This document shows positions 3,016 through 41,222 of a stretch of 64,000 nucleotides of DNA, piece after piece. The notes below the pieces were generated by a model. That model was not told where the DNA came from. It worked only from the letters and a program-made list of their open reading frames with translations, and ran no database searches. The translations under genes and the position numbers were made by a program. This stretch comes from Promicromonospora sp. MEB111. Its GTDB lineage: Bacteria > Actinomycetota > Actinomycetes > Actinomycetales > Cellulomonadaceae. The stretch is from positions 248,001-312,000 of the forward strand of contig NZ_JARVSD010000016.1 in the NCBI RefSeq assembly GCF_030209445.1. Reading direction: 5' to 3'. The first letter of the stretch is position 1. The number at the start of each line of letters is the position of its first letter.

Positions 3016-3386
3016 TGAACCGGCCGGACGCGCAGCGGTTCCCGGCGTCGGTGTTCGGCGTCGGCTCGGAGCCCGACGCGCGCTTCACCCTCGCCAACGA
3101 GCGGACCTTCCTCGCCTGGATCCGGACCGCCCTCGCCCTGGTGGCCGGCGGCGTCGCCCTCGAGACGCTCGGCCTCGACCTGCACCCCGGCCTGCGGCTC
3201 GCGGCGTCGCTCGTGCTCATCGTCGCCGGCACGACGCTGCCGCTGATCGCCTGGGCCGGGTGGATGCGCGTCGAGCGGGCGCTGCGCAACGGCGCGCCGC
3301 TGCCGTCGTCGATCGTGGGCGTGGTGCTCGCCGTCGTCGTCGCGGTGGTCGGCGTGCTCGTGCTGCTGGGCGTGCTGCTGCGATGA
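3015..3386 (+). CDS. DUF202 (YidH-like) inner-membrane protein
   Basis: The 123-residue product carries the DUF202 signature near its N-terminus (RFTLANERTFLAWIRTALALVAGGVALE) and three transmembrane helices. ATG at 3015 overlaps the upstream TGA by one base, and the next gene starts in an ATGA overlap, so the three are translated together. A longer in-frame reading to 2901 exists, but it would run through the preceding gene. The biochemical role of DUF202 proteins is unknown; the operon ties this one to the surface module. Confidence 0.8.
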   Translation: MNRPDAQRFPASVFGVGSEPDARFTLANERTFLAWIRTALALVAGGVALETLGLDLHPGLRLAASLVLIVAGTTLPLIAWAGWMRVERALRNGAPLPSSIVGVVLAVVVAVVGVLVLLGVLLR

Positions 3387-3769
3387 CCGCCGCGGGGACT
3401 CCCCCGGGGGCGGGGTCTCCTCCGGGCTCCGGGCAGGCGCCCGTCCCCGGGCTGCAGCCGGAGCGCACGGAGCTGGCCTGGCGCCGCACGGCGCTGTCGG
3501 TCGCCGCCGTCTCGCTGGTGGGGGCGCGGCTGCTGCCCGCGCTCTTCGGCAGCGCGGTCTGGCTCCTGCCCGGCCTGGCCGGGCTGATGCTGGCCGGGTA
3601 CCTCCTGATCGCGTCCCGACGGCGGCACGGCCGACGAGTGCCGGTGCCGGCCCGGGGCCCGGGGCACGACTCGCCGGGCGCCGGGCTGCTCGCAGTGGCG
3701 GGCGCCGTCGTGGTGACGATCGGCCTGGGCGGGCTGGTGGTCGTCCTGGCCATCCATCTCTGGGCCTGA
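3383..3769 (+). CDS. Second DUF202-family membrane protein
   Basis: The 128-residue product has a Pro/Gly-rich leader, then PERTELAWRRTALSVAAVSLVGARLLP, the divergent DUF202 form commonly paired with a YidH-like partner. Three hydrophobic helices follow. The ATG shares four bases (ATGA) with the previous stop. It is the last gene of the surface operon. A 24-bp-arm hairpin begins 15 bases after the stop, between this gene and the convergent GH16 gene. Confidence 0.75.
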   Translation: MTAAGTPPGAGSPPGSGQAPVPGLQPERTELAWRRTALSVAAVSLVGARLLPALFGSAVWLLPGLAGLMLAGYLLIASRRRHGRRVPVPARGPGHDSPGAGLLAVAGAVVVTIGLGGLVVVLAIHLWA

Positions 3770-3783
3770 CCGCCTGACGCACC

Positions 3784-3862
3784 CAAGGTGCGCTTCTACC
3801 CAGTCATCGGGCCCGGAATCAGGCGTGGTGCGGGCCGAATGACTGGGTAGAAGCGCACCTTG
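3784..3862. repeat. Long hairpin element, family A copy 1 (24-bp perfect arms)
   Basis: Bases 3784-3807 and 3839-3862 are perfect reverse complements, including the core CTACCCAGTCAT/ATGACTGGGTAG, around a GC-rich loop that is partly self-complementary. Two further copies lie at 16098-16174 and 16327-16403. This copy sits between the convergent DUF202 and GH16 genes, so it could end transcription from both sides; no T-run follows. Conserved sequence among copies, not only conserved pairing, points to a repeat family rather than unrelated terminators. Confidence 0.85.
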
Positions 3863-3912
3863 CGGGTGGCGGGTCAGCGGGTGTGCGGGGTGGGCGGTTG
3901 GGCGGGTGCGCG

Positions 3913-5217
3913 TCAGGGCAGCGTCCAGCGCTGGACCGTGCTCCCGTCGCAGTCGGCGATCTGGGTCCGGGTCCCGTCGTTCTGCACCCGGCCGACCGGC
4001 TGCAGGCAGCGACCGGACTGCGGGTTGCGCAGCGCGAGGGTGCCGCTGGTCGAGGCCCACTGCTGGGCGCCGGTGCCGTTGCAGTCCCAGAGCTGGACGG
4101 CGGTACCCGGCGCCGTCGCTCCCCCGGCGACGTCGAGGCACTTGCCGAGCGCGCGGACCGTGCCGTCCGTGCCGACGGTCCACTGCTGGGCGGCGTTGCC
4201 GTTGCAGTTGGCGAGCTGGATGGGCGTGCCGTTGGCCGTGCTGGCCCCGGCGACGTCGAGGCAGATGCCGTTGCTCGCCCGGACCGTGCCCGTGCGCCCG
4301 CCTCCGCCGCCGGTGGAGTCGTAGACCCGGACGTAGTCGACGACCATCTGCTGCGGGAACTGCGTGGTCCCGTCGGGGTAGCCGGGCCAGTTGCCGCCCA
4401 CGGCGACGTTCAGGATGAAGAAGAACGGCTGGTTGAACACCCACGGGTTGCCGCCGGTGTTGGCGGGCGTGAACGTCTGGTACGCGTTGCCGTCCACCAG
4501 CCAGGTGATCGAGTTGGGGCTCCAGTCGATCGCGAAGGTGTGGAAGTCGTCGGCGAACGACCAGCCCTGCGGGTGCTGGTACTGCCCCGTGATGGGGTTG
4601 CCGCCCGAGTAGCCGGGGCCGTGCAGCGTGCCGTGCACCAGGTGGGGCTCGCGGCCGATGTTCTCCATGATGTCGATCTCGCCCGAGCTGGGCCACGGCG
4701 TGCCCGGGAACTGCCCGCCGAGCATCCAGAACGCCGGCCAGATGCCCTGGCCGCGCGGGATCTTGATGCGCGCCTCCAGCCGGCCGTACTGCGGCTGCAC
4801 CTTGCCCTTGGTCGTCAGCCGGGCCGAGGTGTAGCCGCTCCCTTCCTGCCGGGCCGTGATGACGAGGTTGCCGTTGCCGTCCAGGGCGGAGTTCTGGCGG
4901 GAGTTGACGTAGTTCTGCAGCTCGTTGTTGCCCCAGCCGCCCGCGCCGGTCTCGTGGTTCCAGTTCGCGGCGTTGGGGGCGCTGCCCGCCGCGCCGTCGA
5001 ACTCGTCGGACCAGGTCAGGGCGGCGGCAGCCGGTGCGGTCGCCGCCTGCGCCTGCGCTTCCGGTGCGGCCCCGGCGTCGGGCACCTTCGGCGGCGCTGC
5101 CGAGGCGACGAGCGAGGCGGACAGGACGAGCGTCACGGCGGCGACTGCCGTGACCAGGGTCCTGGGTGCGGTGGTTCGGGGGGTGCTGGACCTGCTGGAT
5201 CTGTGTGCACGACGCAT
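3913..5217 (-). CDS. Secreted GH16 endo-beta-1,3-glucanase with C-terminal CBM13 (ricin B lectin) domain
   Basis: The 434-residue protein has a signal peptide (to about residue 40) and an Ala/Pro-rich linker. A GH16 domain (about 66-300) starts LTWSDEFDG. The catalytic motif GEIDIMEN supplies E180 (nucleophile), D182 and E185 (acid/base). The laminarinase-like features NELQNYV and WPAFWMLG suggest beta-1,3- or beta-1,3/1,4-glucan as substrate. After a poly-Gly linker, residues about 313-434 form a ricin-type lectin with repeated QLWDCNGTGAQQW-like units, which bind sugar. The ATG follows GAGGGAG. A promoter is visible upstream and a hairpin lies beyond the stop. It is a single-gene unit that probably acts outside the cell on fungal or plant glucan. 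Confidence 0.92.
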   Translation of the reverse strand: MRRAHRSSRSSTPRTTAPRTLVTAVAAVTLVLSASLVASAAPPKVPDAGAAPEAQAQAATAPAAAALTWSDEFDGAAGSAPNAANWNHETGAGGWGNNELQNYVNSRQNSALDGNGNLVITARQEGSGYTSARLTTKGKVQPQYGRLEARIKIPRGQGIWPAFWMLGGQFPGTPWPSSGEIDIMENIGREPHLVHGTLHGPGYSGGNPITGQYQHPQGWSFADDFHTFAIDWSPNSITWLVDGNAYQTFTPANTGGNPWVFNQPFFFILNVAVGGNWPGYPDGTTQFPQQMVVDYVRVYDSTGGGGGRTGTVRASNGICLDVAGASTANGTPIQLANCNGNAAQQWTVGTDGTVRALGKCLDVAGGATAPGTAVQLWDCNGTGAQQWASTSGTLALRNPQSGRCLQPVGRVQNDGTRTQIADCDGSTVQRWTLP

Positions 5218-5308
5218 CGGGGTGCTCCCTCGACGTGAGCCATCCCGCCGGGCGGGACTGCCCGGCGGTCATCGCAGTGACCTTCGCGCTCAGAGCTGTT
5301 GCTGACGG

Positions 5309-5338
5309 ACCGTACATTCGGCCGTCGGAGCCGCACAA
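5309..5338 (-). promoter_or_regulatory. Candidate promoter of the GH16 gene
   Basis: Read on the minus strand, TTGTGC (5338-5333) and TACGGT (5314-5309) are separated by 18 bases, a reasonable housekeeping-sigma pair about 90 bases before the GH16 start. The rest of the 302-base gap 5218-5519 shows only the GH16 ribosome site and the leaderless -10 of the next gene. I see no LacI-type palindrome here, unlike the GH87 and importer promoters. Confidence 0.4.
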
Positions 5339-5507
5339 CGAGTGGTCGCACAGTTACGGGTTTTCCCATACCTGCAGGGCAGGGCCCGAAGGCAGGGCCG
5401 AGCACGCGGCGCGCAGCACCGGGCACGCGCTGTGAATGTTCTGCCCGCACATCTGAGGATCGGGTGACGGAGGTGCGTGGCGACGCCCGGCGCGCGGACG
5501 CAGCGCT

Positions 5508-5513
5508 TACCGT
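5508..5513 (+). promoter_or_regulatory. -10 box for a leaderless marP transcript
   Basis: TACCGT ends 6 bases before the GTG at 5520, which places the transcript start on the start codon itself. No Shine-Dalgarno sequence precedes that GTG. This supports the start choice for the protease gene. Confidence 0.55.
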
Positions 5514-5519
5514 CTACCC

Positions 5520-6692
5520 GTGACGCTCGTCGACCTCGTGCTCCTCGTGGTGCTGCTCATCGCCCTCGGCGCCGGGCTGAGCCGCGGCCTGCTGGCCACG
5601 CTCGGTGGCCTCGTCGGCCTGATCCTGGGCGGGCTGGCAGCCTTCTGGGCGGTCCCCGCGGTCAACGACGTGCTGCCGTCGTCGCAGTGGCGCGGGCCGG
5701 TGTCGATCGCCCTCGCGGTGCTGCTGCCCGTGTTCGGGGCCTCACTCGGCGCCGGGCTGGGCCGCGACCTGCGCCGCGGCGTGGACCGCACCGCGCTGCG
5801 CCCGCTGGAGCGGCTGCTGGGCGGCGCGGCGAACGTGATCGTGGTCGCCCTGGCGCTGTCGTTCGTGGGCAACGCGGTCTCGGCGACCGGAACGCCCGGC
5901 GTCTCGTCGGCCGTGTCCTCGTCGGCGGTCCTGCGCACCATCGACGACCTGACGCCCGCCGCGGTGGGCCGGCCCCTGGCCCAGATGCGCGCGATGGTGC
6001 TCGACGACGGCCTGCCGCGGCTCAACATCCTGATGGTCCCCCGGCAGGACCCGGTCACTCCCGTCGTCGACCTCGACAACCCGCAGCTCGAGGCCGCCGC
6101 CCAGTCGGTGGCCCGGATCTCCGGCATCGCCTACGCGTGCGGCAAGAGCTCGACCGGCTCGGGGTTCGTCGTGGCCCCGGACCGGCTGGTCACCAACGCG
6201 CACGTCGTGGCGGGCGTGGACCGGCCGGTCGTCGAGCTGCCCGACCGACCGGCCCGCGAGGGGCGCGTCGTGTACTACGACCCGGTCGACGACCTCGCCG
6301 TCGTCGCCGTCGAGGACCTGGCCGCCGAGCCGCTGGAGATCGCGCGGACCCTCTCGGTCGGCGACCGCGCCGCCGTCCAGGGCTACCCCTGGGGCGGACC
6401 GTTCACCTCCGTCGGCGCGGGCGTGCTGAGCGTCAGCACCGCCCCCGTGCCGGACGTCTACAACGAGGGGGCCAGCCCCCGCGAGGTCTACTCGGTGGCC
6501 GCCGAGGTGCGCCCCGGCAACTCGGGCGGGCCGCTGCTGACCACCGACGGGCGCGTGGCGGGCGTCGTCTTCGCGCGCGCCGAGGCCGACGTCGAGGTCG
6601 GCTTCGCCATGACGGACGCCGAGCTGCGCCCCGTCGCGGCCCAGGCCACCGCCCTGGACACCCCGGTGTCGTCGGGACGCTGCGCGGCCTGA
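5520..6692 (+). CDS. marP: MarP-like membrane serine protease (CvpA domain plus trypsin-like domain)
   Basis: In the 390-residue protein, residues 1-150 form four hydrophobic helices of the colicin-V-production (CvpA) type. The rest is an extracytoplasmic chymotrypsin-fold protease. The triad is visible: H228 (TNAHVV), D258 (DPVDDLAVV) and S335 (RPGNSGGPLL). C207 and C388 match the disulfide pair that stabilises mycobacterial MarP. MarP proteins protect against acid and oxidative stress by processing cell-wall enzymes. The GTG start has a -10 box 6 bases upstream and no ribosome site, so the mRNA is probably leaderless. The gene faces the AlkA-like gene 28 bases away. Confidence 0.88.
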   Translation: MTLVDLVLLVVLLIALGAGLSRGLLATLGGLVGLILGGLAAFWAVPAVNDVLPSSQWRGPVSIALAVLLPVFGASLGAGLGRDLRRGVDRTALRPLERLLGGAANVIVVALALSFVGNAVSATGTPGVSSAVSSSAVLRTIDDLTPAAVGRPLAQMRAMVLDDGLPRLNILMVPRQDPVTPVVDLDNPQLEAAAQSVARISGIAYACGKSSTGSGFVVAPDRLVTNAHVVAGVDRPVVELPDRPAREGRVVYYDPVDDLAVVAVEDLAAEPLEIARTLSVGDRAAVQGYPWGGPFTSVGAGVLSVSTAPVPDVYNEGASPREVYSVAAEVRPGNSGGPLLTTDGRVAGVVFARAEADVEVGFAMTDAELRPVAAQATALDTPVSSGRCAA

Positions 6693-6720
6693 GCCCGCCC
6701 GAACCGCCCGGCCGCGAACC

Positions 6721-7692
6721 CTAGAACGCCCGGTGGTCCGCGATCGGCAGCTTGGGCCCGCGTCGTGGCGCGCGCGGGTGCCCGGACAACGACAGCAGTC
6801 GGACCACCCGGTGCCGGTGCGGCGCGTAGGGCGCCAGCAGCCGCAGCATCCCGGCGTCGTCGGTGCGCTCGCCGGCCAGGGCCCAGCCGACCGCGGCCGG
6901 GAGGTGGAAGTCGCCCACGGACACCGCGTCGGCGTCGCCGAACGCGCGCTGCGCCACCTCCGCCGACGTCCACACGCCCACGCCCTGCACCTTCTCCAGC
7001 CGCGCCCGGGCCTCCGCCGGCGCCATCGTGGCCGCCTCCTCCAGCCGCGGGGCCACCAGGGCGCACCGCGCCACGGTCCGCGCGCGTCCGGGATCGACGC
7101 CGGCGCGGTGCCAGTCCCACACGGGGACGCGGGCCCAGACCTGCGCGTCGGGCACCACGCGCAGCCCGCCGCGCTGCACACCTCGCTGCCCACCGCCCAG
7201 CCCGTCGGGCGCCGGTCCGGGGGCCGGGGTGCCGTACCGCAGGAGCAGCCAGCGCCAGGCCCGGTGCGCCGTGACGGTCTGCACGCGCTGCTCCAGCACG
7301 GCGGGCACCAGGGACTCCAGCACCCGCCCGGAGCGGAGCATCCGCATGCCGGCGGCCCGACGGTGGGCGGCGCGGACCTGCGGCGGCGGCGCGAAGCCCG
7401 CCGCGTCGTCGTCCTCGCCGAGCAGGACCGGCAGCGCCTCGGCGGCCTCGCGGGCGCCGTCGCCCCACAGGTGCACCACCACCTCGTGCGGCCCGGCCGG
7501 GACGAACCGCTGCGTCACCGGCCCGGTCCGGAGCAGCGACGTGCGCCAGACGGAGCCGTCGGCGGCCCGGTGGAACGTGGGGTCGCCCGGGCCGTGCGCG
7601 AGCGGTCCGAGCGTCAGGCCGACGTCGAGGCGCCGCGGCGAGGTGTGGCGGACGGTGAGCACATCCCAGTGGACCATGCCGGGACCGGTCAT
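6721..7692 (-). CDS. AlkA-like DNA-3-methyladenine glycosylase (HhH-GPD superfamily)
   Basis: The 323-residue product has an N-terminal AlkA-type beta domain and a C-terminal helix-hairpin-helix fold. The hairpin reads LEKVQGVGVWTSAEV, and the catalytic aspartate is probably D261 in VGDFHLP. The family removes alkylated purines from DNA to start base-excision repair. The ATG overlaps the stop of the hydrolase gene upstream (7689-7692), so both are on one transcript. A low-complexity Gly/Pro insert at about 154-178 is unusual for the family. Confidence 0.85.
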   Translation of the reverse strand: MTGPGMVHWDVLTVRHTSPRRLDVGLTLGPLAHGPGDPTFHRAADGSVWRTSLLRTGPVTQRFVPAGPHEVVVHLWGDGAREAAEALPVLLGEDDDAAGFAPPPQVRAAHRRAAGMRMLRSGRVLESLVPAVLEQRVQTVTAHRAWRWLLLRYGTPAPGPAPDGLGGGQRGVQRGGLRVVPDAQVWARVPVWDWHRAGVDPGRARTVARCALVAPRLEEAATMAPAEARARLEKVQGVGVWTSAEVAQRAFGDADAVSVGDFHLPAAVGWALAGERTDDAGMLRLLAPYAPHRHRVVRLLSLSGHPRAPRRGPKLPIADHRAF

Positions 7693-8393
7693 CCCGAAAC
7701 CCGGGCCACCTCGTGCGCCACGGTCTCCACGAGCAGGCGCTGGCCGAGCGGCCGGAAGTGGCCCGCCAGCGGCAGCTCGATGTTCCGCGCGCCGGGCAGC
7801 CGGCCGGTCTCGGGGATGTGCGGGTCGAACCGCGGGTAGACGGCGGTGATGCGCTCGTTGACCAGGAGCTCGCCCGCGAGCGCCAGCAGAACCGGGTCGC
7901 GCGGGTCGAACGACCGCAGGGGGCGCGCGAGCATGTACCGCGCCCAGCGGGAGCCGGAGAAGGGCGTGGCGACCGCGACCATGCCCAGTACGCGGTCGCT
8001 CGCGGGCGAGAGCATGACGCGCTTGCCGATGAGGCCGCCCTTGCTGTGCGCCACGAGCACGACGCCGGACAGGTCGGCGCGCTCCAGGTGCTCCACGACG
8101 ACGTCGGCGGACTCGGGGACGGGACGGGCGTTGTGCCGCAGCGCGGGGACGGCGTGCACGGGGTGGCCCGCGCGGGCGAGCGCGGTCGCCACCGGGCGGA
8201 GGAACTCCCAGGTCTCGTAGATGCCGGGCAGCAGCACGACGGGGGCGGCGTCGCCGGTTCCGGTGGGCAGGGCGGCGCGGCCCAGCAGGGAGCGCAGCTG
8301 CCGGTCGACGGCCCAGGCGTAGTCGACGGCCCGGGTGCCGAGCCGGGCCCGCGCCCAGGAAGCGGACCTGCCGGGGCCGCGGGACCGGTTCAT
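7689..8393 (-). CDS. Alpha/beta-hydrolase (esterase/lipase-like)
   Basis: The 234-residue product starts MNRSRGPGRS; a longer frame to 8882 would run across the divergent SDR gene and is rejected. The fold is shown by PVVLLPGIYETWEFLRPVA (oxyanion region) and the elbow VLVAHSKGG with its Ser nucleophile. A late GHFRPLG segment probably supplies the His. Such PGIYETW hydrolases are often called triacylglycerol-lipase-like, but the substrate is unknown. It is the first gene of a two-gene operon with the AlkA-like gene and diverges from the SDR gene across 55 bases. Confidence 0.75.
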   Translation of the reverse strand: MNRSRGPGRSASWARARLGTRAVDYAWAVDRQLRSLLGRAALPTGTGDAAPVVLLPGIYETWEFLRPVATALARAGHPVHAVPALRHNARPVPESADVVVEHLERADLSGVVLVAHSKGGLIGKRVMLSPASDRVLGMVAVATPFSGSRWARYMLARPLRSFDPRDPVLLALAGELLVNERITAVYPRFDPHIPETGRLPGARNIELPLAGHFRPLGQRLLVETVAHEVARVSG

Positions 8394-8448
8394 CAGCTGC
8401 AGGCTACCGCGGGATGCGGGTGCCCGGGCCGGGTGCGACGGTTGCCTC

Positions 8449-10020
8449 ATGCGCGTCGTCGTCGTGGGTGCCACCGGGAACGTCGGGACGGCGCTGCTGC
8501 GCGCCCTGCACGCCGAGCCGCGGGTCACGTCGCTGCTGGGGATCGCCCGGCGGCTGCCGGACCGGGCCGCGGAGCCGTACCGGCACGCGGGGTGGGCCGC
8601 GGTCGACGTCGGCTCCGAGGACACCGACGAGACCGTGGTCGCGCGGCTCGCCGACCAGTTCGGCGGGGCGGACGCCGTGGTCCACCTGGCCTGGCTGACC
8701 CAGCCCAACCGCGAGCGCGAGCTGCTGCGCCGCACCAACGTGGAGGGCACCCGCCGGGTGGCCGAGGCCGTGGCGCGGGCGGGGGTGCCGCACCTGGTGG
8801 TCGCCTCGTCGGTGGGCGCGTACTCCCCCGTGGGCGACGACGCGCCGCGCCGCGAGGACTGGCCCGTCCGTGGCACCCCCACGTCGCACTACAGCGTCGA
8901 CAAGGCCGCGCAGGAGCGGGTGCTCGACGAGCTCGAGGCCGCGCACCCCGACGTCGTGGTGGCCCGGCTGCGGACCGCACTGGTCTTCCAGGCGTGCGCC
9001 GCCCCGTCGATCGCGCGCGCCTTCCTCGGGCCGCTGGTGCCGGTGCGGCTGCTGCGCCGGGGGCGGCTGCCCGCGCTGCCGCTGCCCGCCGGGCTGCGGC
9101 TGCAGGCGGTGCACGCCGACGACGTCGCCGACGCCTACCGGCGCGTGGTGGTCGAGCGGGCCGCCGGAGCGTTCAACGTCGCTGCCCGGGACGTGCTGCA
9201 CGGCACGGACCTCGCACGGATCGTGGACCACGGACGCCTGGTCGAGATGCCGCCCGGCGCCGTCCGCGGCGCCCTGGCCGCCGCGTACGCCGCGCACACG
9301 GTGCCCGCGGACCCGGGCTGGCTGGACATGGCGCTGTCCGCGCCGGTGCTGGACGCCGCGCGGATCCGGACCGAGCTGGGCTGGGAACCGCGCCGGACGG
9401 CGGCGGAAGCCGTCGAGGACCTGCTGGACGGCATGGCCGTGGGGCAGGGCATGGGCTCGGCGCCGCTGCGTCCGGCGAGCCCACGGCCCCCGGGCGAGTG
9501 GGCTGGGCCGCGGATCCCCGACTCGATGGACCACTACCTCTTCGGCCTCTACCTCTCGGACCACTTCACCGGCGCGACGGCGGGCCTGGAACGCCTGGAG
9601 CTGATGACCCGCACGTCCGAGGACACGCCGTTCTACGCGGAGCTGGCCGAGGCGACCGAGCAGCTCCGGGCCGAGCGGGAGCTCTACCGCGACCTGCTGG
9701 CCGCCCTGGGCGTGCCGCGCCGCCGGCACCGCCAGGCCGCGGCGTGGCTGGGCGAGAAGGCCGGGCGGCTCAAGCTCAACGGCCGGATCACGGACCGGTC
9801 GCCGATGACGGCGGTGCTGGAGGCGGAGCTCATGCGGTCGGCGGTGCTGGGCAAGATCGGCGGCTGGCAGACGCTGCGGGAGCACGCCGCCGACGTCGGC
9901 CTGGACCCGGCGCGGCTCGACGAGCTCATCGCGCAGGCACGCCGTCAGATCGACCTGTTCGACCGATACCACGCCTGGGCGCGTGAACGGGCGTTCCGGA
10001 CGGCGGCCTGGGAGCGCTAG
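8449..10020 (+). CDS. NAD-dependent epimerase/SDR fused to a helical C-terminal domain
   Basis: The 523-residue product starts MRVVVVGATGNVG, a Rossmann glycine motif at residues 6-13. The extended-SDR catalytic pair is in TSHYSVDKAAQE (Tyr and Lys). This domain ends near residue 335 (ELGWEPRRTAAEAVEDLLDG). A Pro-rich linker leads to about 165 residues of mainly helical sequence (MDHYLFGLYLSDHFTGATAG onward) that I do not recognise with certainty; it is reminiscent of ferritin-like four-helix bundles. GACGGT, 6 bases before the ATG, may be a leaderless -10. The stop overlaps the stop of the convergent YihY gene. Confidence 0.75.
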   Translation: MRVVVVGATGNVGTALLRALHAEPRVTSLLGIARRLPDRAAEPYRHAGWAAVDVGSEDTDETVVARLADQFGGADAVVHLAWLTQPNRERELLRRTNVEGTRRVAEAVARAGVPHLVVASSVGAYSPVGDDAPRREDWPVRGTPTSHYSVDKAAQERVLDELEAAHPDVVVARLRTALVFQACAAPSIARAFLGPLVPVRLLRRGRLPALPLPAGLRLQAVHADDVADAYRRVVVERAAGAFNVAARDVLHGTDLARIVDHGRLVEMPPGAVRGALAAAYAAHTVPADPGWLDMALSAPVLDAARIRTELGWEPRRTAAEAVEDLLDGMAVGQGMGSAPLRPASPRPPGEWAGPRIPDSMDHYLFGLYLSDHFTGATAGLERLELMTRTSEDTPFYAELAEATEQLRAERELYRDLLAALGVPRRRHRQAAAWLGEKAGRLKLNGRITDRSPMTAVLEAELMRSAVLGKIGGWQTLREHAADVGLDPARLDELIAQARRQIDLFDRYHAWARERAFRTAAWER

Positions 10021-11111
10021 CCCTCGGTCTCGTCCGCGGCATCCTCCCGCGCCGCATCCTCCCGTGCCGCCGCGACCCGGATCTCGCGGCCCCGCTCGAC
10101 CTCGCGCAGGTGCTTCGCCTGGCGCTTCTCGCTCGCCCGCGCGTCCTTGGGCGGGAGCTGCACGCTCTCCTCGGCGGCGATGCCGCCCTGGAGCTCGCGC
10201 CCGCGTTCGAGCTCCGCGTCCAGCTCGGCGCCGAACAGCAGCGCGAGGTTGGTGATCCAGAGCCACAGCAGGAACACGATGATCCCGGCCAGCGAGCCGT
10301 AGGTCGCGTCATAGCCGGCGAAGGTCGCGACGTAGAAGCCGAACGCGGCGGAGGCGAGCACCCACGACAGGATCGCGACGAACGCCCCGACGCTGATCCA
10401 GCGCATCTTCGGTTGCCGCACGTTCGGCGTGACGTGGTACAGGATCGCGACCAGCACGATGACCAGCGCCAGCACGACCGGCCACTTGGCGATGTTCCAC
10501 ACCGTGACGGACGTCGAGCCCAGGCCCACGGCGTCGCCCACCGCCCGGGCCAGGGGCCCGCTCAGCACGAGCGCCGCGACGATCAGGGCCGCCGTGACCA
10601 CGGCGACCAGCGTGACCAGCAGCATCACCGGGCGCAGCTTCCAGACGGGGCGGCCCTCGTCGATCCCGTAGATCCGGTTCATCGCCCGTCCGAAGGCGCC
10701 GACGTACCCCGACGCCGACCACAGGGCCAGGGCGACACCGAGCACGAGGGTGAGCCCGGCCCGCCCGCCGCCCGCCGCGGCGTTCTGGACGAGCGGCTCG
10801 ACGATCGCCAGCACGTCCGGCGGCACCACGCCGTCGACCGTGTCGAGCACGCGCTCGACCGCCTGGCCGCCGTCCCCCACGAGCCCGAGCACCGAGACCA
10901 GGGCGAGCAGGGCCGGCGCCGCGGCGAGCACCGCGTAGTACGTCAGTGCCGCGGCCAGGTCCAGGCACTCGTCGCGGGTGAACTGCCGCACGGTGTTGCG
11001 CGCGACGTACTTCCAGGTGCCGCGGTGCAGGTCCGGCGGGGCGTCCGGTTTGCGCCGGTCGTCCGGCGCCGGTGCCTCCACGCGCGCTGACGAGTCGTCG
11101 ATGTCGGCCAT
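10017..11111 (-). CDS. YihY/BrkB-family membrane protein
   Basis: The 364-residue protein has six predicted helices and the family pattern LDLAAALTYYAVLAAAPALLALVSVLGLVG near the N-terminus. GSLAGIIVFLLWLWITNLALLFGAELDAELER comes near the C-terminus. A charged tail with AAREDA repeats follows. The start at 11111 is chosen because AAGGGGGAG lies just upstream; the frame continues to 11189 without such a site. Family members were once called ribonuclease BN, which is a misnomer; their function is not settled. Confidence 0.85.
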   Translation of the reverse strand: MADIDDSSARVEAPAPDDRRKPDAPPDLHRGTWKYVARNTVRQFTRDECLDLAAALTYYAVLAAAPALLALVSVLGLVGDGGQAVERVLDTVDGVVPPDVLAIVEPLVQNAAAGGGRAGLTLVLGVALALWSASGYVGAFGRAMNRIYGIDEGRPVWKLRPVMLLVTLVAVVTAALIVAALVLSGPLARAVGDAVGLGSTSVTVWNIAKWPVVLALVIVLVAILYHVTPNVRQPKMRWISVGAFVAILSWVLASAAFGFYVATFAGYDATYGSLAGIIVFLLWLWITNLALLFGAELDAELERGRELQGGIAAEESVQLPPKDARASEKRQAKHLREVERGREIRVAAAREDAAREDAADETEG

Positions 11112-11282
11112 GCCCGCTCCCCCTTCGACCTCGAACCAACCTAGGCCGACGGCCGCCACTCGCAACCCGGGGTTCACCAGCCCCTTCACCGCCCGGACTG
11201 TCCGAATCGCCCGAACCGGCGTAGGGTGAATCGCTCGGAGTCATGAAGCGGCTCCCGATCCGGACGGATCTGGGAGGTCCCT

Positions 11283-12074
11283 GTGTCCTTGATCGAACAG
11301 CCCCGCACGACCGCCCTGAGCAACAACCAGAACGACCGCTCGGCGATCTCCGCGGAATTCTCGCCGGCCGACCTCATGCGCACGATGGGTCTCGGCACCA
11401 ATCTTCTGGTCGGCACCTACCGCGTCGAGCTCTCCTCCGGGATCTGGTGGTGGTCGGACGAGGTCTACACCATGCACGGCTGGAAGCGGGACGAGATCGA
11501 GCCGGGGCTCGACGCGCTGCGCTCCCGCAAGCACCCGGACGACCGGAGCCGGGTGGTCCGCGCCGCCAGCCAGGCGCTGCGGGTGGGCCGGCCCTTCGCG
11601 TGCGCGCACCGCATCGTGGACCGTAACGGTCGCACCAGGTCGGTGGTGGTGACCGGCCAGGGCAGCCAGAGCGGCAGCAGCAGCTCGCCCGAGCTGGTCG
11701 GCTACGTCGTGGACGTCACGCCCGTGCAGAAGGAGGCGCTGGACCGGGAGGCGGACGGCGCCGTGAACCGCGCCTTCGTCAGCCAGGCGGCGATCGAGCA
11801 GGCCAAGGGCGTCATCGCGGCGGTGCGGGGCGTCGACGAGAACGCGGCCATGGAGATCCTGGTCGACGTCGCGCGCAAGGCGGACGTCTCGCTGCGGCTG
11901 GCCGCCGACCAGGTCATGGCTGCCCTGCGGGCCGACAACGAGAAGACCGGCGTGACCCAGGCGGCGCTCAGGCGCGCGCTCGACGTCGTCCACCCGGTGG
12001 GCCGGCCGCGCGGCCACGACGCGCTGCTGACCCGGCGGCCGCGTCGCACGGACACGCGCCGCCGGGACAACTGA
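11283..12074 (+). CDS. PAS-ANTAR RNA-binding antitermination regulator
   Basis: In the 263-residue product, residues about 40-150 form a PAS-type sensor domain (GTYRVELSSGIWWWSDEVYTMHGW). Residues about 165-225 form an ANTAR domain (SQAAIEQAKGVIAAVRGVDENAAMEILVDVARKADVSL). ANTAR proteins bind paired RNA hairpins and prevent early termination. The GTG start follows GGGAGG. No partner kinase lies beside it, so the signal is probably sensed by its own PAS domain. The basic tail is low complexity. Confidence 0.85.
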   Translation: MSLIEQPRTTALSNNQNDRSAISAEFSPADLMRTMGLGTNLLVGTYRVELSSGIWWWSDEVYTMHGWKRDEIEPGLDALRSRKHPDDRSRVVRAASQALRVGRPFACAHRIVDRNGRTRSVVVTGQGSQSGSSSSPELVGYVVDVTPVQKEALDREADGAVNRAFVSQAAIEQAKGVIAAVRGVDENAAMEILVDVARKADVSLRLAADQVMAALRADNEKTGVTQAALRRALDVVHPVGRPRGHDALLTRRPRRTDTRRRDN

Positions 12075-12093
12075 CCGGGACGGCTGAGCGGCG

Positions 12094-13848
12094 TCAGCCG
12101 CGTCCGCCGGACGCCGGCCGCGAGAAGGTGGGCAGGGTGAAGGACGGCTCGCCCGGCGTCAGCTCCGTGGTGTACGCCGCGAGGTAGGAGTCCAGCCAGA
12201 CGGCGCGCCCGCCCTCGGTGGGCACGTCGCCGGCCGGGTCGTCCACCGCGAGCTCCAGGCGGGCGTCCCGGACCCGGATGGTCTGGCCCGACGGCGTGTC
12301 CACCCACGAGCCGGACTGGATCGAGCCGATCTCCACGGCCAGCCGGTGGCCGGCGGCCAGGGTCCAGTCGGTCGACTCGAGGTCGAGGGCCACCCGGCCC
12401 GGGTCGATGACGGCGGCCTGCTCGACGAACGGCACGGCCGTCCCGTCCGGGGCGACGTCGTGCAGCTCGACCAGCACGTTGCCGGTGCCCCGCACGTCCA
12501 GCGACACCTTCGGGGTGCCGACGACGCGGGTGTCCCGCTCGACGGGCTCGGACCACGTCAGGAAGCTCGACCGGGCGCCGTCCTGCTCCTCGTCCGGGCC
12601 GCCGTCGTCCACGTACGCGCCGCCGCCGAGCGCGACCCGTGCGGTCCGGTCGGCGGCCGGCCACGTGTCCTCGGCGCGCCAGGCGCCGGTGCTGTCCTGG
12701 ACCGAGAACGCCGGGTATTCCGTCGTCGGCCCGGTGCCCTTGAGGTGCTCGTCGTAGAAGGCGCCGATCTCGTCGAACCAGCCCTCGCGCCCCATCTTCC
12801 ACGTGCCGTCCTCGGTGCGGTCGTTGCCCCGGACGTGATCCCACGGGCCGAGCCAGCCGCGCTGCGGGCCGTCGTGGTTGGCGAGGTACTCGGCCATGCC
12901 CTCGGGCCGGGTGTTCCACTCTAGGAAGCCCTGGGTGACGAACAGCGGGGTGTCGCTCCCCTTCGCGTGCTTCGCCAGGTCCCGGTCCTGCCAGTAGCTC
13001 GTGGCCGGGTCAGCCTTCAGGTTGTTCAGCGTGTTGGCCGCGAGGCACTCGGGGTGCGCCAGCTCGTACCGGGAGTTCTTCACGTAGCGCTCGTCGTCGT
13101 CCGCCATCTGCGGCAGCTGGGCGATCGTGTTGTACGTGCTCGGGGCGATGATCCCCTCCTGACGCGGTACGCCGTTGGACCGGATGCGGTCGTACATGTC
13201 CCAGATGGGCTCCTGCGCGACGACGGCCTTGAGCGCGTCCTGGTCCAGGTTGTTGCCGATCAGGCCGGTGACGGCGTCGTACGACTTGCCGTACATGCCC
13301 ACCGCCCCGGTGGACCACGACTGGTCGGCGGCCCAGTCGATCGCGGCGGCGACGTCGGCCTGCTCGCCGGGGCCCGCGAAGTCGATGCAGCCGGTCGAGC
13401 CGCCGTAGCCCCGGGTGTCCACCAGGACCAGGGCGTAGCCGCGGTCGAACAGGTCGATGCCCTCGACCAGGTCGCCGAACCGGTCGGACGGGCCGGTGTG
13501 CGCGTGGCCCTCCTCGGAGATCTCGCCCGAGTGCCCGAAGTACGAGCCGGCCGACAGGATCACCGGCACCCGCTCACCCTTCTCCAGCCCCTCCGGCAGC
13601 AGGACGTCGGCGTGCAGCTCGACGTCGGAACCGTCCGAGGACGGGAAGTAGTGCTGCGTCCAGGCGGCGCCCTCGGGGACGCGGTCGTTCTCCTCGTGCG
13701 TCACCGGGCGGTCGGCGGTGGCGACGGCGGCGGGCTCGTCCGACGCCTTCTGCGACGTCGCCGTGGCGACCGGGACGGTGACCGCGCCCGTCAGGGCGAC
13801 GGCGGCGAGGGCTGAGACGGTCGTGACTGCGGCGCGTGAGCTGTGCAC
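12094..13848 (-). CDS. Secreted S15-family CocE/X-Pro dipeptidyl-peptidase-like hydrolase
   Basis: The 584-residue protein has a signal peptide (to about residue 33). An S15 alpha/beta-hydrolase domain follows, with nucleophile S189 in GMYGKSYDAVTG, DTRGYGGSTGC upstream of it, and a His in LGPWDHVRGN. A C-terminal jelly-roll domain (about 395-560) is typical of X-Pro dipeptidyl-peptidases and cocaine esterases. The GTG start follows GGAGGAG. It is divergent from a two-component system across 289 bases that contain inverted CGTGAC half-sites, which makes it a plausible target of that system. The real substrate, peptide or ester, cannot be told from sequence. Confidence 0.85.
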   Translation of the reverse strand: MHSSRAAVTTVSALAAVALTGAVTVPVATATSQKASDEPAAVATADRPVTHEENDRVPEGAAWTQHYFPSSDGSDVELHADVLLPEGLEKGERVPVILSAGSYFGHSGEISEEGHAHTGPSDRFGDLVEGIDLFDRGYALVLVDTRGYGGSTGCIDFAGPGEQADVAAAIDWAADQSWSTGAVGMYGKSYDAVTGLIGNNLDQDALKAVVAQEPIWDMYDRIRSNGVPRQEGIIAPSTYNTIAQLPQMADDDERYVKNSRYELAHPECLAANTLNNLKADPATSYWQDRDLAKHAKGSDTPLFVTQGFLEWNTRPEGMAEYLANHDGPQRGWLGPWDHVRGNDRTEDGTWKMGREGWFDEIGAFYDEHLKGTGPTTEYPAFSVQDSTGAWRAEDTWPAADRTARVALGGGAYVDDGGPDEEQDGARSSFLTWSEPVERDTRVVGTPKVSLDVRGTGNVLVELHDVAPDGTAVPFVEQAAVIDPGRVALDLESTDWTLAAGHRLAVEIGSIQSGSWVDTPSGQTIRVRDARLELAVDDPAGDVPTEGGRAVWLDSYLAAYTTELTPGEPSFTLPTFSRPASGGRG

Positions 13849-13940
13849 GTGCTCCTCCAGTGTTGGGGTGGCTGCGTCGTGGGTGAGATGCCTGTGGCTC
13901 GATCACACCCGAACGTTCACCCGCCCGGCAGTGGGACGAC

Positions 13941-13991
13941 GTCACGGGCCGGTCGTGACATTCGTCGGGGGCGGCCGTGACGCAGCGTCAC
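13941..13991. promoter_or_regulatory. Two inverted repeats of CGTGAC half-sites between the S15 gene and the two-component system
   Basis: GTCACG-N7-CGTGAC covers 13941-13959 and GTGACG-CAG-CGTCAC covers 13977-13991, giving four half-sites in 51 bases within the divergent gap 13849-14137. NarL/FixJ-type regulators bind such short inverted repeats, so this may be the site of the adjacent response regulator. The rest of the gap shows no gene. Confidence 0.45.
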
Positions 13992-14137
13992 TGGTGAGGT
14001 CGGCGTCGGGCACGAATACTGGGTCCCGCGCGACTCTTCCTGCCTGACCCGTTCCCGCCCGACCCGTTCCCCGCGCGACCCGGAGTTCCCATGGAGACCA
14101 AGCCCGCGAGCGAGCGCCACCTGCCGGGTACCGACCG

Positions 14138-15295
14138 TTGAGGCCCGGACGAACCGCCCTGTCCGAGCACAACGAGGCCTCCCAGGGGAGGCTCCGCCGG
14201 CTCAACCTGGTGCTGCAGGTGCCGCCCGTCGCGCTGGCGGGGGCGGTGCTCGTCGCGTTCGACCACGACAACCTGTGGGGCACGGTCGCCCTGGTCGTGG
14301 GGGTGGCGGTCGCGGTCGTGGCCATGGAGCGGTGGACGGCGGACGACCTCGCGCGGGTCGCCGTGCCCTGCCTGGCCGCCGGCGCCGTGGTGTGGCTGTT
14401 CGGCGCGCTCGTGACGGGCAGCAGCACGGCGTTCTACGGCATCGGCGTCGTGGGCTCCCTCGTGGTGCCGCAGCTCCCGCGGCGCCGGGTCGCCGCGCTG
14501 CTCGGGCTGGTCGTCCTCATCGCGGCTGCGAGCGCGAGCCGGCTGCTGGTGACCCAGGACGACGACGTCGGGGACCTGATCGCCTACGTGCTGGTCCCGA
14601 CCGGCGTCTTCGTGCTGGCCACCGCCCTGCTGTACGGCAACCAGCGGTACCTCGACCTCATGAAGGAGACGCGCGACCGCGAGGCGGAGCTCGCCGTGGC
14701 GCAGGAACGGATCCGGTTCGCGAGCGACCTGCACGACATCCAGGGCCACACCCTGCACGTGGTGAAGCTGAAGACCGTGCTGGCCCAGAAGCTGGTGCAC
14801 GGCGACGCCGACCGGGCACAGGAGGAGCTGCGCGAGATCCACGCCCTGGTCGCCGACACGATCGCGCAGACCAAGGACCTGGCGCACGCGCAGCGCCGGC
14901 TCAACCTGTCGGCCGAGCTGGAGAACGCGAAGAACCTGTTCGAGGCCGCGGGCATCGACGTCCGCGTCGACCGCGTGGCCGAGGCCGACCCACGGACCGC
15001 CGAGCTGCTCGGCCAGGTGCTGCGCGAGACGACCACCAACATCCTGCGGCACGCGCAGGCCTCGCTGGTGCGGATCACGCTGTCCGGCTCGGGCATCGAC
15101 ATCGTCAACGACGGCGTCCGGGACGGGCCGCTGCCCGCGCTCAGCGGGCTGTCCGCCCTGCGGCAGCGCGTCGCCGAGGACGGCGGCGAGCTGACGGTGG
15201 AGCAGGGCGCCGGACGGTTCCGGACCGCGGCCGGGTTCCCGCGGGCCGGCGCGACCCCCGCGCCGGAAGTGAAAGCACTGGAGGGCAGCCGATGA
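14138..15295 (+). CDS. DesK-type sensor histidine kinase
   Basis: The 385-residue protein has five to six transmembrane helices in residues 20-168. The HisKA_3 dimerisation box ERIRFASDLHDIQGHTLHVV has phospho-acceptor H199. The ATPase domain includes QVLRETTTNILRHAQA (N box), but its glycine boxes look shortened. The TTG at 14138 is the most upstream in-frame start and has a poor ribosome site; a GTG near 14209 is an alternative. The stop overlaps the regulator start (ATGA). Family members often sense membrane state. Confidence 0.85.
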   Translation: MRPGRTALSEHNEASQGRLRRLNLVLQVPPVALAGAVLVAFDHDNLWGTVALVVGVAVAVVAMERWTADDLARVAVPCLAAGAVVWLFGALVTGSSTAFYGIGVVGSLVVPQLPRRRVAALLGLVVLIAAASASRLLVTQDDDVGDLIAYVLVPTGVFVLATALLYGNQRYLDLMKETRDREAELAVAQERIRFASDLHDIQGHTLHVVKLKTVLAQKLVHGDADRAQEELREIHALVADTIAQTKDLAHAQRRLNLSAELENAKNLFEAAGIDVRVDRVAEADPRTAELLGQVLRETTTNILRHAQASLVRITLSGSGIDIVNDGVRDGPLPALSGLSALRQRVAEDGGELTVEQGAGRFRTAAGFPRAGATPAPEVKALEGSR

Positions 15296-15894
15296 CCACG
15301 GTGGTACTGGCCGACGACGAGGCCCTGCTGCGTAAGGCCCTGGCCGCGCTGCTCCCCCTCGAGGGCGACATCACGGTTCTGGCCGAGGCCGAGAACGGTG
15401 CCACCGCCGTCGAGGCCACGCTCCTGCACCGGCCCGACGTCCTCGTGATCGACCTGGAGATGCCAGGGGTGGACGGGCTCGGCGCCGTCGCGCAGATCCG
15501 CGCCGCGCGGCCGGACCAGGTGATCCTCATGCTCACCCGCCACGCCCGGCCGGGGGTGCTGCGCAAGGCGCTGCGGCTCGGCGTCCAGGGCTTCGTCAGC
15601 AAGTCCGCGGAGCCGGCGCACATCACGCAGGTCATCGCGGCGCTGCACGAGGGCAAGCGCTGGATCGACCCGGACGTCTCGGCGCTCGCCGTCATCGACG
15701 ACTGCCCGCTCACGGAGCGGGAGGTCGACGTCCTGCGGGTGACGAGCAAGGGCTACTCGGTCGCCGAGATCGCCGCCCAGCTCCACCTCGCGGAGGGCAC
15801 GGTGCGCAACTACCTCTCGAACGCGATGCAGAAGACCCAGACCCGGACCCGGCACGAGGCGGCGCGGTACGCACGGGAGCACGACTGGTTGTAG
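15292..15894 (+). CDS. NarL/FixJ (DesR-like) response regulator
   Basis: In the 200-residue product, the receiver domain has acidic residues D8/D9, phospho-acceptor D54 (VLVIDLEMPGVDG) and the K in GFVSKSAEP. A LuxR-type helix-turn-helix (LTEREVDVLRVTSKGYSVAEIAAQLHLAEGTVRNYLS) follows. It overlaps its kinase by four bases. Likely targets are its own promoter region and the divergent S15 gene. Confidence 0.9.
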   Translation: MTTVVLADDEALLRKALAALLPLEGDITVLAEAENGATAVEATLLHRPDVLVIDLEMPGVDGLGAVAQIRAARPDQVILMLTRHARPGVLRKALRLGVQGFVSKSAEPAHITQVIAALHEGKRWIDPDVSALAVIDDCPLTEREVDVLRVTSKGYSVAEIAAQLHLAEGTVRNYLSNAMQKTQTRTRHEAARYAREHDWL

Positions 15895-16097
15895 GGGTGG
15901 CCGGCTGGTCGGGATGGCTGGCTGGTCCGGGTGGCTGGTCGTGGGGCGCGTCGATCCGGGTCGAGGACGGGCGGTTCACAGAGGTGGGGGTCCGGCGTGG
16001 TCGGGCGTGGTCGAGGTGAGGCGGGGGCGAACTGGCGGGCGGCGATGCCGTGACGCCGTGACGCGCACTGGCACGCGTCCGTGGGGCCGGCAGCGCA

Positions 16098-16174
16098 GAA
16101 GTGCGCCTCTACCCAGTCATCAGGCCCGGACCTACAGTGTTTCCGGGCCCGATGACTGGGTAGAACCGCACCTC
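16098..16174. repeat. Long hairpin element, family A copy 2
   Basis: This copy has the core CTACCCAGTCATC, GGCCCGGA, a variable loop, CCGGGCCC and GATGACTGGGTAGA, flanked by GTGCG-like and CGCAC ends. The arms have two mismatches over 21 bases. The inner GGCCCGGA/CCGGGCC pairing is better preserved than in the copy at 3784. Confidence 0.8.
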
Positions 16175-16203
16175 CCGGGCCGGCGCCAACCCCCGCAACA
16201 GAG

Positions 16204-16259
16204 ACCGGCCACCGAGCATCGAGCATCGAGCACCGGCCACCGGCCACCGGCCACCGAGC
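16204..16259. repeat. Heptanucleotide tandem repeat, eight units
   Basis: Eight consecutive 7-base units fit ACCGGCC, ACCGAGC or ATCGAGC. The unit length is constant while two positions vary. It lies between two hairpin copies in non-coding DNA, so copy number is free to change. Confidence 0.75.
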
Positions 16260-16326
16260 AGGGTGCCAACGGCCGATGCACATCGCATCCCGGAACCGGA
16301 CGGAGTTTCGTGGAGTCAGCGGCCGG

Positions 16327-16403
16327 GAAGTGCGTTTCTACCCAGTCGTAAGGCCCGGATCTACGGTGACTTCTGGGCCTGATGACTGGGTACAACCGCA
16401 CTT
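16327..16403. repeat. Long hairpin element, family A copy 3
   Basis: This copy has GAAGTGCGTTTCTACCCAGT on the left and GATGACTGGGTACAACCGCA on the right, with internal GGCCCGGA and GGGCC segments. It is the most diverged copy, with several unpaired arm positions, but the block order matches the other two. It lies 152 bases after copy 2 in the same orientation. Confidence 0.78.
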
Positions 16404-16762
16404 TGCCCGGGGCGACACCGACCTCGCACGAGGCACGAGGCACTGGACAGGCGCGCACCGTACGGGCTGGCACACGGGCGTTGAGCAGGCTGTCATGGCC
16501 CGCTCCCGAATGGCCATGACAGGAGCTCGTCCCGGGCTCGCTGGCAGACAGGCCGCACGAGCAGATGACGCGCCAGAGCAGTCGCTCGCCGACGGCCCAG
16601 CCGGTTGCGGACCCGACCGACTCGGCCCGGCCCGAGCGCCCGGAGGTTACCCGAGTCGGACTCAATGAGGCGTGCATCCACAGGGCCGCGAACGAGGCGG
16701 ACGTCGATTTCCGCTGATGGCAGATGGGGTCGGTTCGGCGAGCGATGCGAACGCGTGTGTCA

Positions 16763-16768
16763 TAGGTT
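16763..16768 (+). promoter_or_regulatory. -10 box for a leaderless DUF222-HNH transcript
   Basis: TAGGTT ends 6 bases before the ATG at 16775 and no ribosome site is present, which fits transcription starting at the start codon. Confidence 0.5.
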
Positions 16769-16774
16769 GATGGC

Positions 16775-40855: not shown

Positions 40856-41218
40856 GTGAGGAACACGGGTGCGCGCCAGGCCGACGTCGCCAGGCTCCGC
40901 ACCGCGTTGGCCGGGCTGTCGGGCGAGCCCGAGTGGTCGGGCGACGGCATGCAGCGCCCCGAGTGCCGCTCGACGCGGGCCTCGATCCACGACTACCTCT
41001 CGGGGCGGCTGCTCCCCCACCGCCGGCACCGGCTGGAGCGACACCTGGACGGCTGTGCCGCGTGCATCCGCGCGTTCATCGACGTCCGCCAGGTGTCCTG
41101 GAACCGCAGCGCCCTGGACCGGCGCCTGGTCGCCGACGACCACCGGGGCGGCCGGCACCGCCGGCCCCTCCGCCGACGTGTCAGACGTACAGGTCACTCG
41201 GGTGACCTGTACGTCTGA
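40856..41218 (+). CDS. Anti-sigma-factor-like zinc-finger protein (orphan)
   Basis: In the 120-residue product, SIHDYLSGRLLPHRRHRLERHLDGCAACIRAF matches the zinc-binding anti-sigma (zf-HC2) pattern His-x3-Cys-x2-Cys. There is no membrane helix, so a soluble ZAS-type regulator is possible. The GTG start follows AAGGGGG. No sigma-factor gene is adjacent. Its last residues and stop codon lie inside the 46-bp hairpin at 41177-41222, so the C-terminus (HSGDLYV) is written by the repeat. Confidence 0.65.
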   Translation: MRNTGARQADVARLRTALAGLSGEPEWSGDGMQRPECRSTRASIHDYLSGRLLPHRRHRLERHLDGCAACIRAFIDVRQVSWNRSALDRRLVADDHRGGRHRRPLRRRVRRTGHSGDLYV

Positions 41219-41222
41219 CACG
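41177..41222. repeat. 46-bp perfect hairpin, family B copy 1
   Basis: The hairpin has 21-bp perfect arms (outer CGTGTCAG, inner CAGGTCAC) around TCGG. It sits between the convergent zinc-finger and GH5 genes and could stop transcription from both sides; no T-run is present. A second copy lies at 42887-42932, on the other side of GH5. Conserved loop and arm sequence beyond base pairing supports a repeat family. Confidence 0.88.

What the first reader, a model, noticed from the sequence alone, without database searches (positions are those of the whole stretch)
3784..16403. Three-copy family of sequence-conserved 77-79-bp hairpins
Copies at 3784-3862, 16098-16174 and 16327-16403 share the order GTGCG, CTACCCAGTCAT, GGCCCGGA, variable loop, GGGCC, ATGACTGGGTAG, CGCAC. 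Terminators normally conserve pairing, not sequence, so this looks like a repetitive palindromic element (REP- or MITE-like) that may double as a bidirectional terminator. I do not recognise it as a named family.
Basis: seen in the sequence. Interest (0 to 1): 0.75.

Follow-up and report, generated by a model that had tools for sequence, protein, structure and literature searches.

The report
Dispersed hairpin repeat at gene ends
A soil bacterium of the genus Promicromonospora carries 27 scattered copies of a 79-letter DNA hairpin, mostly after the ends of genes, and it is one of several such hairpin families that seem to spread through these genomes and replace each other, probably serving as transcript-end signals.

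Summary
The three hairpins belong to a sequence-conserved family with 27 copies in this 6.23 Mb genome and 0 to about 51 in 12 other Promicromonospora genomes. Of 93 other genomes of the taxonomic family, 6 gave one weak match each. Copies sit mostly after stop codons (14 of 27 between convergent genes, 1 between divergent genes). One copy lies in frame inside an ABC-ATPase gene, where 10 of 10 homologues from other genera lack it.

In an unbiased 790 kb sample, 28 of 50 intergenic long hairpins fall into six sequence families (0 to 2 in shuffled controls), so this is one of several. Different species can carry different families at one gene end. Copies at the same site in two species are hardly more alike than copies at different sites.

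Best reading: a non-autonomous palindromic repeat that spreads by copying, is kept at gene 3' ends, and acts there as a bidirectional transcript-end hairpin. REP membership fails (no Y1 transposase in 13 of 13 genomes). The U-tract of a canonical terminator is absent. No target-site duplication was seen, and the mover is unknown. The closest precedent is pneumococcal SPRITE.

The parts
3784..3862 (.). Family A hairpin, copy 1, between convergent genes (14 bp after the left gene, 50 bp after the GH16 gene)
   Evidence: CM R1 88.0/87.4 bits; fold -65.8 kcal/mol, z -12.4; gene context
16097..16175 (.). Family A hairpin, copy 2, downstream of the response-regulator-like gene
   Evidence: CM R1 90.8/87.1 bits; fold z -9.5/-11.6
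16326..16405 (.). Family A hairpin, copy 3, 229 bp after copy 2; left edge of a 2.1 kb repeat shared with contig C11
   Evidence: CM R1 76.4/67.9 bits; BLAST edge
3383..3769 (+). Gene whose 3' end faces copy 1 (387 nt in the codon-usage gene calls)
3913..5217 (-). GH16 glucanase with ricin-type lectin domain; its 3' end faces copy 1
   Evidence: Pfam PF00722 E 7.9e-30
15292..15894 (+). Response-regulator-like gene upstream of copies 2 and 3 (name from reading the sequence, not searched)
   Evidence: gene calls
16775..18550 (+). DUF222-HNH endonuclease gene, multicopy in the genus; part of the repeat that begins at copy 3
   Evidence: ORF; PF02720 and PF01844 on 16946-18550; repeat
41177..41222 (.). 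Hairpin of a second family (B: GTGTCAGAC...GTCTGACAC), same kind of element

Best explanation
This is a dispersed, genus-restricted palindromic repeat (about 79 bp, nearly one perfect hairpin). Shown: it is repeated, sits mostly directly after stop codons, is shared with some relatives and missing in others, and stands in frame inside a coding sequence where homologues lack it. Inferred: it spreads as a hairpin-only unit by a copying process whose enzyme is unknown (non-autonomous), is tolerated or selected at gene 3' ends, and there its transcript folds on either strand into a very stable hairpin. That hairpin ends transcription (I-shaped, without U-tract, perhaps with NusG or Rho) and/or stops 3' exonucleases. 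It is one of at least six hairpin families in this genome, and families can take each other's place at the same gene end.
For: 27 copies in G000 and about 51/36/24/22/21/14/13/10/8/4/4/0 in 12 congeners (matches halved). In G000 14 of 27 copies are convergent and 1 divergent; against sampled intergenic DNA (16% convergent) 14 of 26 has p 1.4e-5. Hairpins of all families in the 790 kb sample lie within 100 bp of a stop codon in 26 of 38 cases, null 9.7, 0 of 5000 draws. 28 of 50 sampled intergenic hairpins fall into 6 families, shuffles 0-2. Swap A to J at one convergent pair; A, J and other hairpins behind the GH16 gene in different species. Copies at the same site in two species are hardly more alike (0.86) than copies at different sites (0.83). 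In-frame copies in an ABC-ATPase of three species, absent from 10 of 10 homologues of other genera. Pairing kept through change: 90.4% of 2302 cells, 25 of 33 pairs with double changes, 0 of 500 shuffles as high.
Against: No T-rich tail after the stem (T 0.06-0.15 against 0.16 background, 50 copies), so canonical intrinsic termination is not supported. No transposase of the REP type. No clear target-site duplication and no clean 79-bp empty site: in the three alignments made the extra or replaced block does not match the hairpin's own limits. 13 of 23 held G010 copies have a G000 counterpart at the same site, so much of the distribution is inherited. Paired changes could also come from template switching between arms rather than from selection on RNA. 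The intragenic copy and the differences between species show presence and absence, not movement in action. No expression data.
Confidence: 0.7

Rival explanations
1. Ordinary host transcript-end hairpins whose sequence is held constant by a sequence-specific RNA- or DNA-binding protein. The copies are old, inherited at fixed sites, and follow the protein's specificity in each species, without mobility.
For: 13 of 23 held G010 copies have a G000 copy at the same site. Pairs 18-68, 22-64 and 32-54 are invariant in 70 of 70 copies. 11 of 13 held G012 copies have AGCG where the G000 consensus has AGTC, mostly with the partner arm changed too.
Against: The same gene ends carry unrelated families in other species. 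Six families coexist in one genome. One copy is in frame inside a gene, absent from homologues. Site orthologues are hardly closer than other copies. Copy number runs from 0 to about 51 in one genus.
Confidence: 0.15
2. MITE of a cut-and-paste DDE transposon: the palindrome is the fused terminal repeats of a parent insertion sequence.
For: The whole unit is an inverted repeat, AT-richer than its surroundings (G000 copies GC 0.56-0.72; contig C32 0.726), and dispersed.
Against: No target-site duplication seen in flanks or in three site comparisons. Loops differ between most copies. A parent element was not searched for.
Confidence: 0.15
3. DNA uptake signal pairs acting as terminators, as in Neisseria and Pasteurellaceae.
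For: Sequence-conserved inverted pairs after genes, as described for uptake signals (PMC1852404, passages).
Against: Arms hardly occur alone: TACCCAGTCAT 9 inside long hairpins and 1 elsewhere, TTGAGTGCTGG 11 and 0 in 790 kb. Tens of copies, not about 1000. Several unrelated motifs in one genome.
Confidence: 0.02
4. The hairpin is the end of the DUF222-HNH element and is moved by that endonuclease.
For: Copy 3 is the left edge of an 83% identical repeat with the DUF222-HNH gene, seen also at C11:304992.
Against: Only these two DUF222 genes were seen to have it. Seven other G000 places match the DUF222 gene only from window 16706-16734 on, without hairpin. The other 24 hairpins are more than 12 kb from any DUF222 match listed.
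Confidence: 0.05

Closest known systems
SPRITE of Streptococcus pneumoniae (PMC3049150, passages read)
   Same: 30 copies, terminator-like hairpin, enriched between convergent genes and near 3' ends, coexists with other repeat families (BOX, RUP), nearly confined to close relatives, target-site duplication not resolved.
   Different: SPRITE has an 18-bp duplex with a U-rich tract. This one has a stem of about 33 pairs and no U-tract. Family replacement at the same gene end and an in-frame intragenic copy were not in the SPRITE passages read.
REP/BIME with RAYT (PMC3733652, passages)
   Same: Dispersed palindromes downstream of genes and between convergent genes; several families per genome.
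   Different: REPs are 20-40 bp with an unpaired GTAG or CGTC end and, for GTAG, a Y1 transposase. Here 79 bp, GTAG paired inside the stem, no Y1 protein found in the genus. CGTC REPs also lack a known transposase.
Stem-loop sequence families (PMC2267715, PMC1590033; passages)
   Same: Repeated sequence families sharing a stem-loop; in the 40 genomes surveyed, stable stem-loops concentrate on the 3' side of genes.
   Different: The high-GC Gram-positive genomes named in the passages seen are Corynebacterium and Mycobacterium; no Promicromonospora appeared there.
Rickettsia palindromic elements (recalled; mentioned in passing in PMC10969869 and PMC3049150)
   Same: Palindromic repeat inserted in frame into protein-coding genes.
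   Different: Here 1 of 27 copies is intragenic; most are at 3' ends.
I-shaped terminators of mycobacteria (PMC12288462, passages)
   Same: Hairpin without U-tract within 50 bp of the stop codon in a high-GC actinobacterium.
   Different: No sequence conservation among them is mentioned in the passages read; whether they terminate is disputed (references listed there).

Membership tests
REP (GTAG type, RAYT-mobilised) | Y1/RAYT transposase in the genome | tested here: not met
   PF01797: 0 of 13 Promicromonospora genomes; controls ring in 5 of 14 named genomes, E. coli included
REP (GTAG type, RAYT-mobilised) | 20-40 bp palindrome with unpaired GTAG at one end | tested here: not met
   79 bp; CTAC/GTAG is paired inside the stem
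REP (GTAG type, RAYT-mobilised) | Intergenic, downstream of genes, between convergent or unidirectional genes | tested here: met
MITE | Terminal inverted repeats, short, without a gene of its own | tested here: met
   the whole unit is one inverted repeat
MITE | Target-site duplication | tested here: inconclusive
   none visible in flanks; no clean empty site in the three comparisons aligned
MITE | Parent autonomous transposon with matching ends | not tested
   no genome-wide search for DDE transposases flanked by the arms was made
Canonical intrinsic terminator | Stable hairpin directly after stop codon | tested here: met
Canonical intrinsic terminator | U-tract after the stem | tested here: not met
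   T fraction 0.06-0.15 outside the stem, background 0.16
DNA uptake signal terminator | Motif also abundant singly | tested here: not met
SPRITE-like dispersed terminator-like repeat | Sequence-conserved dispersed family enriched at 3' ends of convergent genes, confined to close relatives | tested here: met
SPRITE-like dispersed terminator-like repeat | U-rich tract after the stem | tested here: not met
Any of the above | Experimentally ends transcription or moves | not testable with these tools
   no RNA or strain-resequencing data held

The most novel reading that the evidence does not exclude
Promicromonospora genomes carry a set of interchangeable hairpin cassettes: several unrelated families of long palindromes, each spread as a hairpin-only unit by a system that does not use the known Y1 REP transposase, installed at gene 3' ends, where one family can replace another and the copies in a genome are kept alike.
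Probability: 0.2. Interest if true: 0.8.

Novelty: new variant of a known kind. Interest (0 to 1): 0.52.

Why it matters
Canonical terminators are scarce in mycobacteria, and whether U-less hairpins end transcripts there is disputed (PMC12288462). A family of 27 closely similar hairpins at gene ends in another high-GC actinobacterium, with sister species lacking the family or carrying another one at the same gene end, is a natural experiment that makes this testable. It also suggests that gene-end signals in a genus can be mobile and interchangeable, and poses a concrete question: what copies a bare hairpin in genomes without the known REP transposase.

Tried and rejected
Rfam (window 3500-17000, E up to 1): the 3 hits, mir-3130 twice and mir-9198, are far below the gathering scores (41 of 95 and 27 of 92 bits). 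I read these as chance likeness of arms.

RAYT: none in 13 of 13 genomes.

DUF222-HNH as mover: edge coincidence at one repeat pair only.

Phage, virus or plasmid origin: no exact match of the A arm pattern in IMG/VR and none for one 79-bp copy in the plasmid and phage collections.

Pattern hits outside the genus in 84,980 species: 7 of 19 stretches (Bacillus sp. B15-48 three times, Limosilactobacillus, Halomonas, two MAGs) have other sequence around and between the arms and are not this element. Records near the window's own genome may be left out of that scan.

Tandem duplication as the origin of all clusters: of 19 close pairs examined (under 300 bp apart), by my reading 7, in 4 of 13 clusters, have upstream-upstream or downstream-downstream homology of 40 bp or more (matches of the downstream flank of one with the upstream flank of the next are the same spacer and were ignored). 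So it explains only some.

Caveats on counts: gene calls are from my own codon-usage script, not from annotation. 12 of 50 sampled intergenic hairpins did not map to intergenic regions of 80 bp or more and were left out of the placement test. The mean for non-orthologous copies left out five divergent copies (L080-L084) and used 21 others per pair. One G000-G010 pair recognised later (L106/L063) is not. 23 of about 36 G010 copies were held. Two low-scoring G004 hits were dropped from alignment A2. One search drew 101 genomes and scored fewer candidates; one search is the better count for the genus. J counts use exact arms only. My first comparison of the ABC-ATPase read one strand only and gave 4 homologues; one search repeats it on both strands with 10 loci, all 10 usable, one (G015) ending in the linker.

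Literature: no listed paper described this element in searches; lists were capped (for example 20 of 1,587, 8 of 3,559), and subscription journals are mostly not held. For all papers cited I saw passages or search listings only.
Full report
OBSERVATION. The three hairpins exist where stated. They fold with z -8 to -12 against dinucleotide shuffles. The consensus of the family, from 28 copies, is about GAARGTGCGCTTCTACCCAGTCAT-NN-GGCCCGGAA-loop-TTCCGGGCC-NN-ATGACTGGGTAGAAGCGCACYTTC, about 79 bp, with the loop and the NN positions variable.

GENOME AND RELATIVES. The window is part of a 6.23 Mb genome, G000. Named hits and matching contig lengths identify the genus as Promicromonospora, with P. 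sukumoe = G010, P. thailandica = G011 and P. kroppenstedtii = G009. A covariance model (R1) finds 54 matches in G000, that is 27 places on both strands, E 1.9e-26 to 1.5e-8. Matches in the other 12 genomes of the genus: G006 102, G010 71, G002 47, G012 45, G009 42, G011 28, G003 27, G007 20, G004 17, G001 8, G008 7, G005 0; halve for places. In a draw of 101 genomes of the family, 13 have matches: 7 Promicromonospora (8 were drawn, going by the full list of the same draw) and 6 of 93 others with 2 matches each, presumably one place on both strands, E 5e-6 to 5e-4. An exact-arm pattern found copies in 5 of 99 genomes (G000 included), all in the genus. Nothing was found in viral contigs by pattern, nor in plasmids or phages with one copy as query.

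PLACE. By my gene calls, the 27 copies lie 14 between convergent genes, 11 between co-directional genes, 1 between divergent genes and 1 inside a gene. Of the 11 co-directional copies, 10 are nearer to the upstream stop codon than to the next start. Against intergenic sequence of the sample, 14 of 26 convergent has p 1.4e-5 and 1 of 26 divergent has p 2.4e-5.

STRUCTURE AND SEQUENCE. On 70 copies from five species, 90.4% of 2302 cells pair, 25 of 33 pairs show double changes, and no shuffle of 500 reaches this; slid controls fall to 29-44%. So both pairing and letters are kept. There is no T-rich tail: beyond the terminal CCTT of the stem, T is 0.06-0.15 in 50 copies against 0.16 in intergenic DNA. 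Canonical intrinsic termination is therefore not supported. The U-less, I-shaped form is reported, and disputed, for mycobacteria (PMC12288462, passages).

NOT ALONE. In 790 kb of G000 (contig C32 and the first 400 kb of C11, whole stretches), 55 long hairpins were found, 50 intergenic. 28 of these 50 fall into six sequence clusters (9, 6, 6, 3, 2, 2), family A being one of the sixes; shuffled hairpins gave 0 in 29 runs and 2 in one. In this sample 26 of 38 mappable hairpins have their centre within 100 bp of a stop codon (null 9.7, 0 of 5000), 12 are convergent (null 6.2, p 0.013), 7 are divergent (null 15.4), and 12 of 19 co-directional ones are nearer to the stop (null 8.1, p 0.10). Family J (TTGAGTGCTGG...CCAGCACTCAA), counted by exact arms, has 43 copies in G012, 35 in G004, 23 in G000, 14 in G008, 2 in G011, 1 each in G010 and G007, and 0 in G005. 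This differs from the ranking of family A. Of the 19 G000 J copies listed there, 9 share a nearly identical loop in one or the other orientation, which points to recent copying.

TURNOVER. Behind the gene at L064 site A, 11 of 13 species have a long hairpin (G004 and G005 do not), but of different sequence: A type in G000, G010, G006, G009; CAGCGAT type in G012; ACCCAGTCAT with other flanks in G011 and G007; CCACCAAGCAGTT type in G003. Behind the GH16 gene of the window (copy 1), G000, G010, G006 and G009 have A (G006 three copies), G007 has the CAGCGAT type, G012 and G004 have J, G008 and G011 have other hairpins, and G003 only a short one; the remaining species were not examined there. One convergent pair has A in G010 and J in G000, with both flanks about 91-92% identical. 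Another has a family B hairpin between two stop codons in G010, where G000 has only a few bases. Of 23 G010 copies examined, 13 have an A copy at the same place in G000, 2 have the place without A, and 8 have no clear counterpart among the 980 kb of G000 held, which includes all 27 G000 copies with their surroundings. For 12 orthologous pairs, identity (best orientation) averages 0.86, against 0.83 for non-orthologous copies; in no pair is the orthologue the single best match, and in 3 of 12 at most 2 of 21 others are as good. In one pair (L120/L065) the central 28 bases match fully only when inverted. This is what template switching in a palindrome would give, and it means that part of the paired change may be mutational rather than selected.

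INSERTION. The copy at G000 C22:94197 lies in frame in a 585-aa protein with two ABC ATPase domains. Codon score and GC3 drop in the two 20-codon bins that hold it. The counterparts in G010 and G006 carry it too, G006 twice, all in one open frame. 10 of 10 homologues from other genera (38-66% identical; 8 of the same family, 2 of other families of the order) lack the roughly 27 residues, though gap placement in this linker is approximate and one sequence ends there (one search was a first, partial version). This is the best single sign that the unit inserts. In G006 the second copy came with part of its flank, so some clusters arise by local duplication.

INTERPRETATION. Shown: a dispersed family, its placement, its coexistence with other families, and its turnover. 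Inferred: spread of hairpin-only units by an unknown agent, and a function at transcript ends. REP membership fails on transposase, size and end. MITE membership is open. Uptake-signal pairs are disfavoured by the lack of lone arms. The DUF222-HNH link rests on one repeat pair. The closest precedent I read is SPRITE of pneumococcus (PMC3049150, passages), with 30 copies, terminator-like, convergent, and without a resolved target duplication. The present case differs in its long U-less stem, several interchangeable families and an in-frame copy. Hence: new variant of a known kind, interest a little above the middle.

Noticed in passing
window 41177-41222; L064:413; L072:8622; G010 L105, L106, L107, L109, L111, L113: Family B hairpins GTGTCAGACgtaCAGGTCACC...GGTGACCTGtacGTCTGACAC, 9 in 790 kb of G000.
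   Followed up: partly
G000 C32:155246, C32:203439, C11:9785 and others: Family J (TTGAGTGCTGG): strict outer stem (fixed by the search pattern) with a varying but mostly paired inner stem in G004 and G012; a shared loop in 9 of 19 listed G000 copies suggests a recent burst.
   Followed up: partly
window 16326-18507 and G000 C11:304992-307282: 83% identical repeat of hairpin, spacer and DUF222-HNH gene that starts at the hairpin; other DUF222 copies share only the part from about 16709.
   Followed up: partly
G006 C2:995520-1000038 against L064:2600-6700: The gene between two hairpin sites lies inverted relative to its neighbours in G006, as recombination between palindromes would give.
   Followed up: no
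L083:6327-6381 and G010 L118:4918: A 55-57 bp hairpin (CTATGCCTAGTGCTGCTAGGG) with identical letters in two species although the DNA next to it differs; may be more tightly constrained than the others.
   Followed up: no
window 59484-59568: A long hairpin, 85 bp, that joined no family in the 790 kb sample.
   Followed up: no
L027, L042, L045 (Bacillus sp. B15-48): A different repeated palindrome that also contains TACCCAGTC...GACTGGGTA, three places in one genome, flanked by AACTTCCAT-like ends.
   Followed up: no
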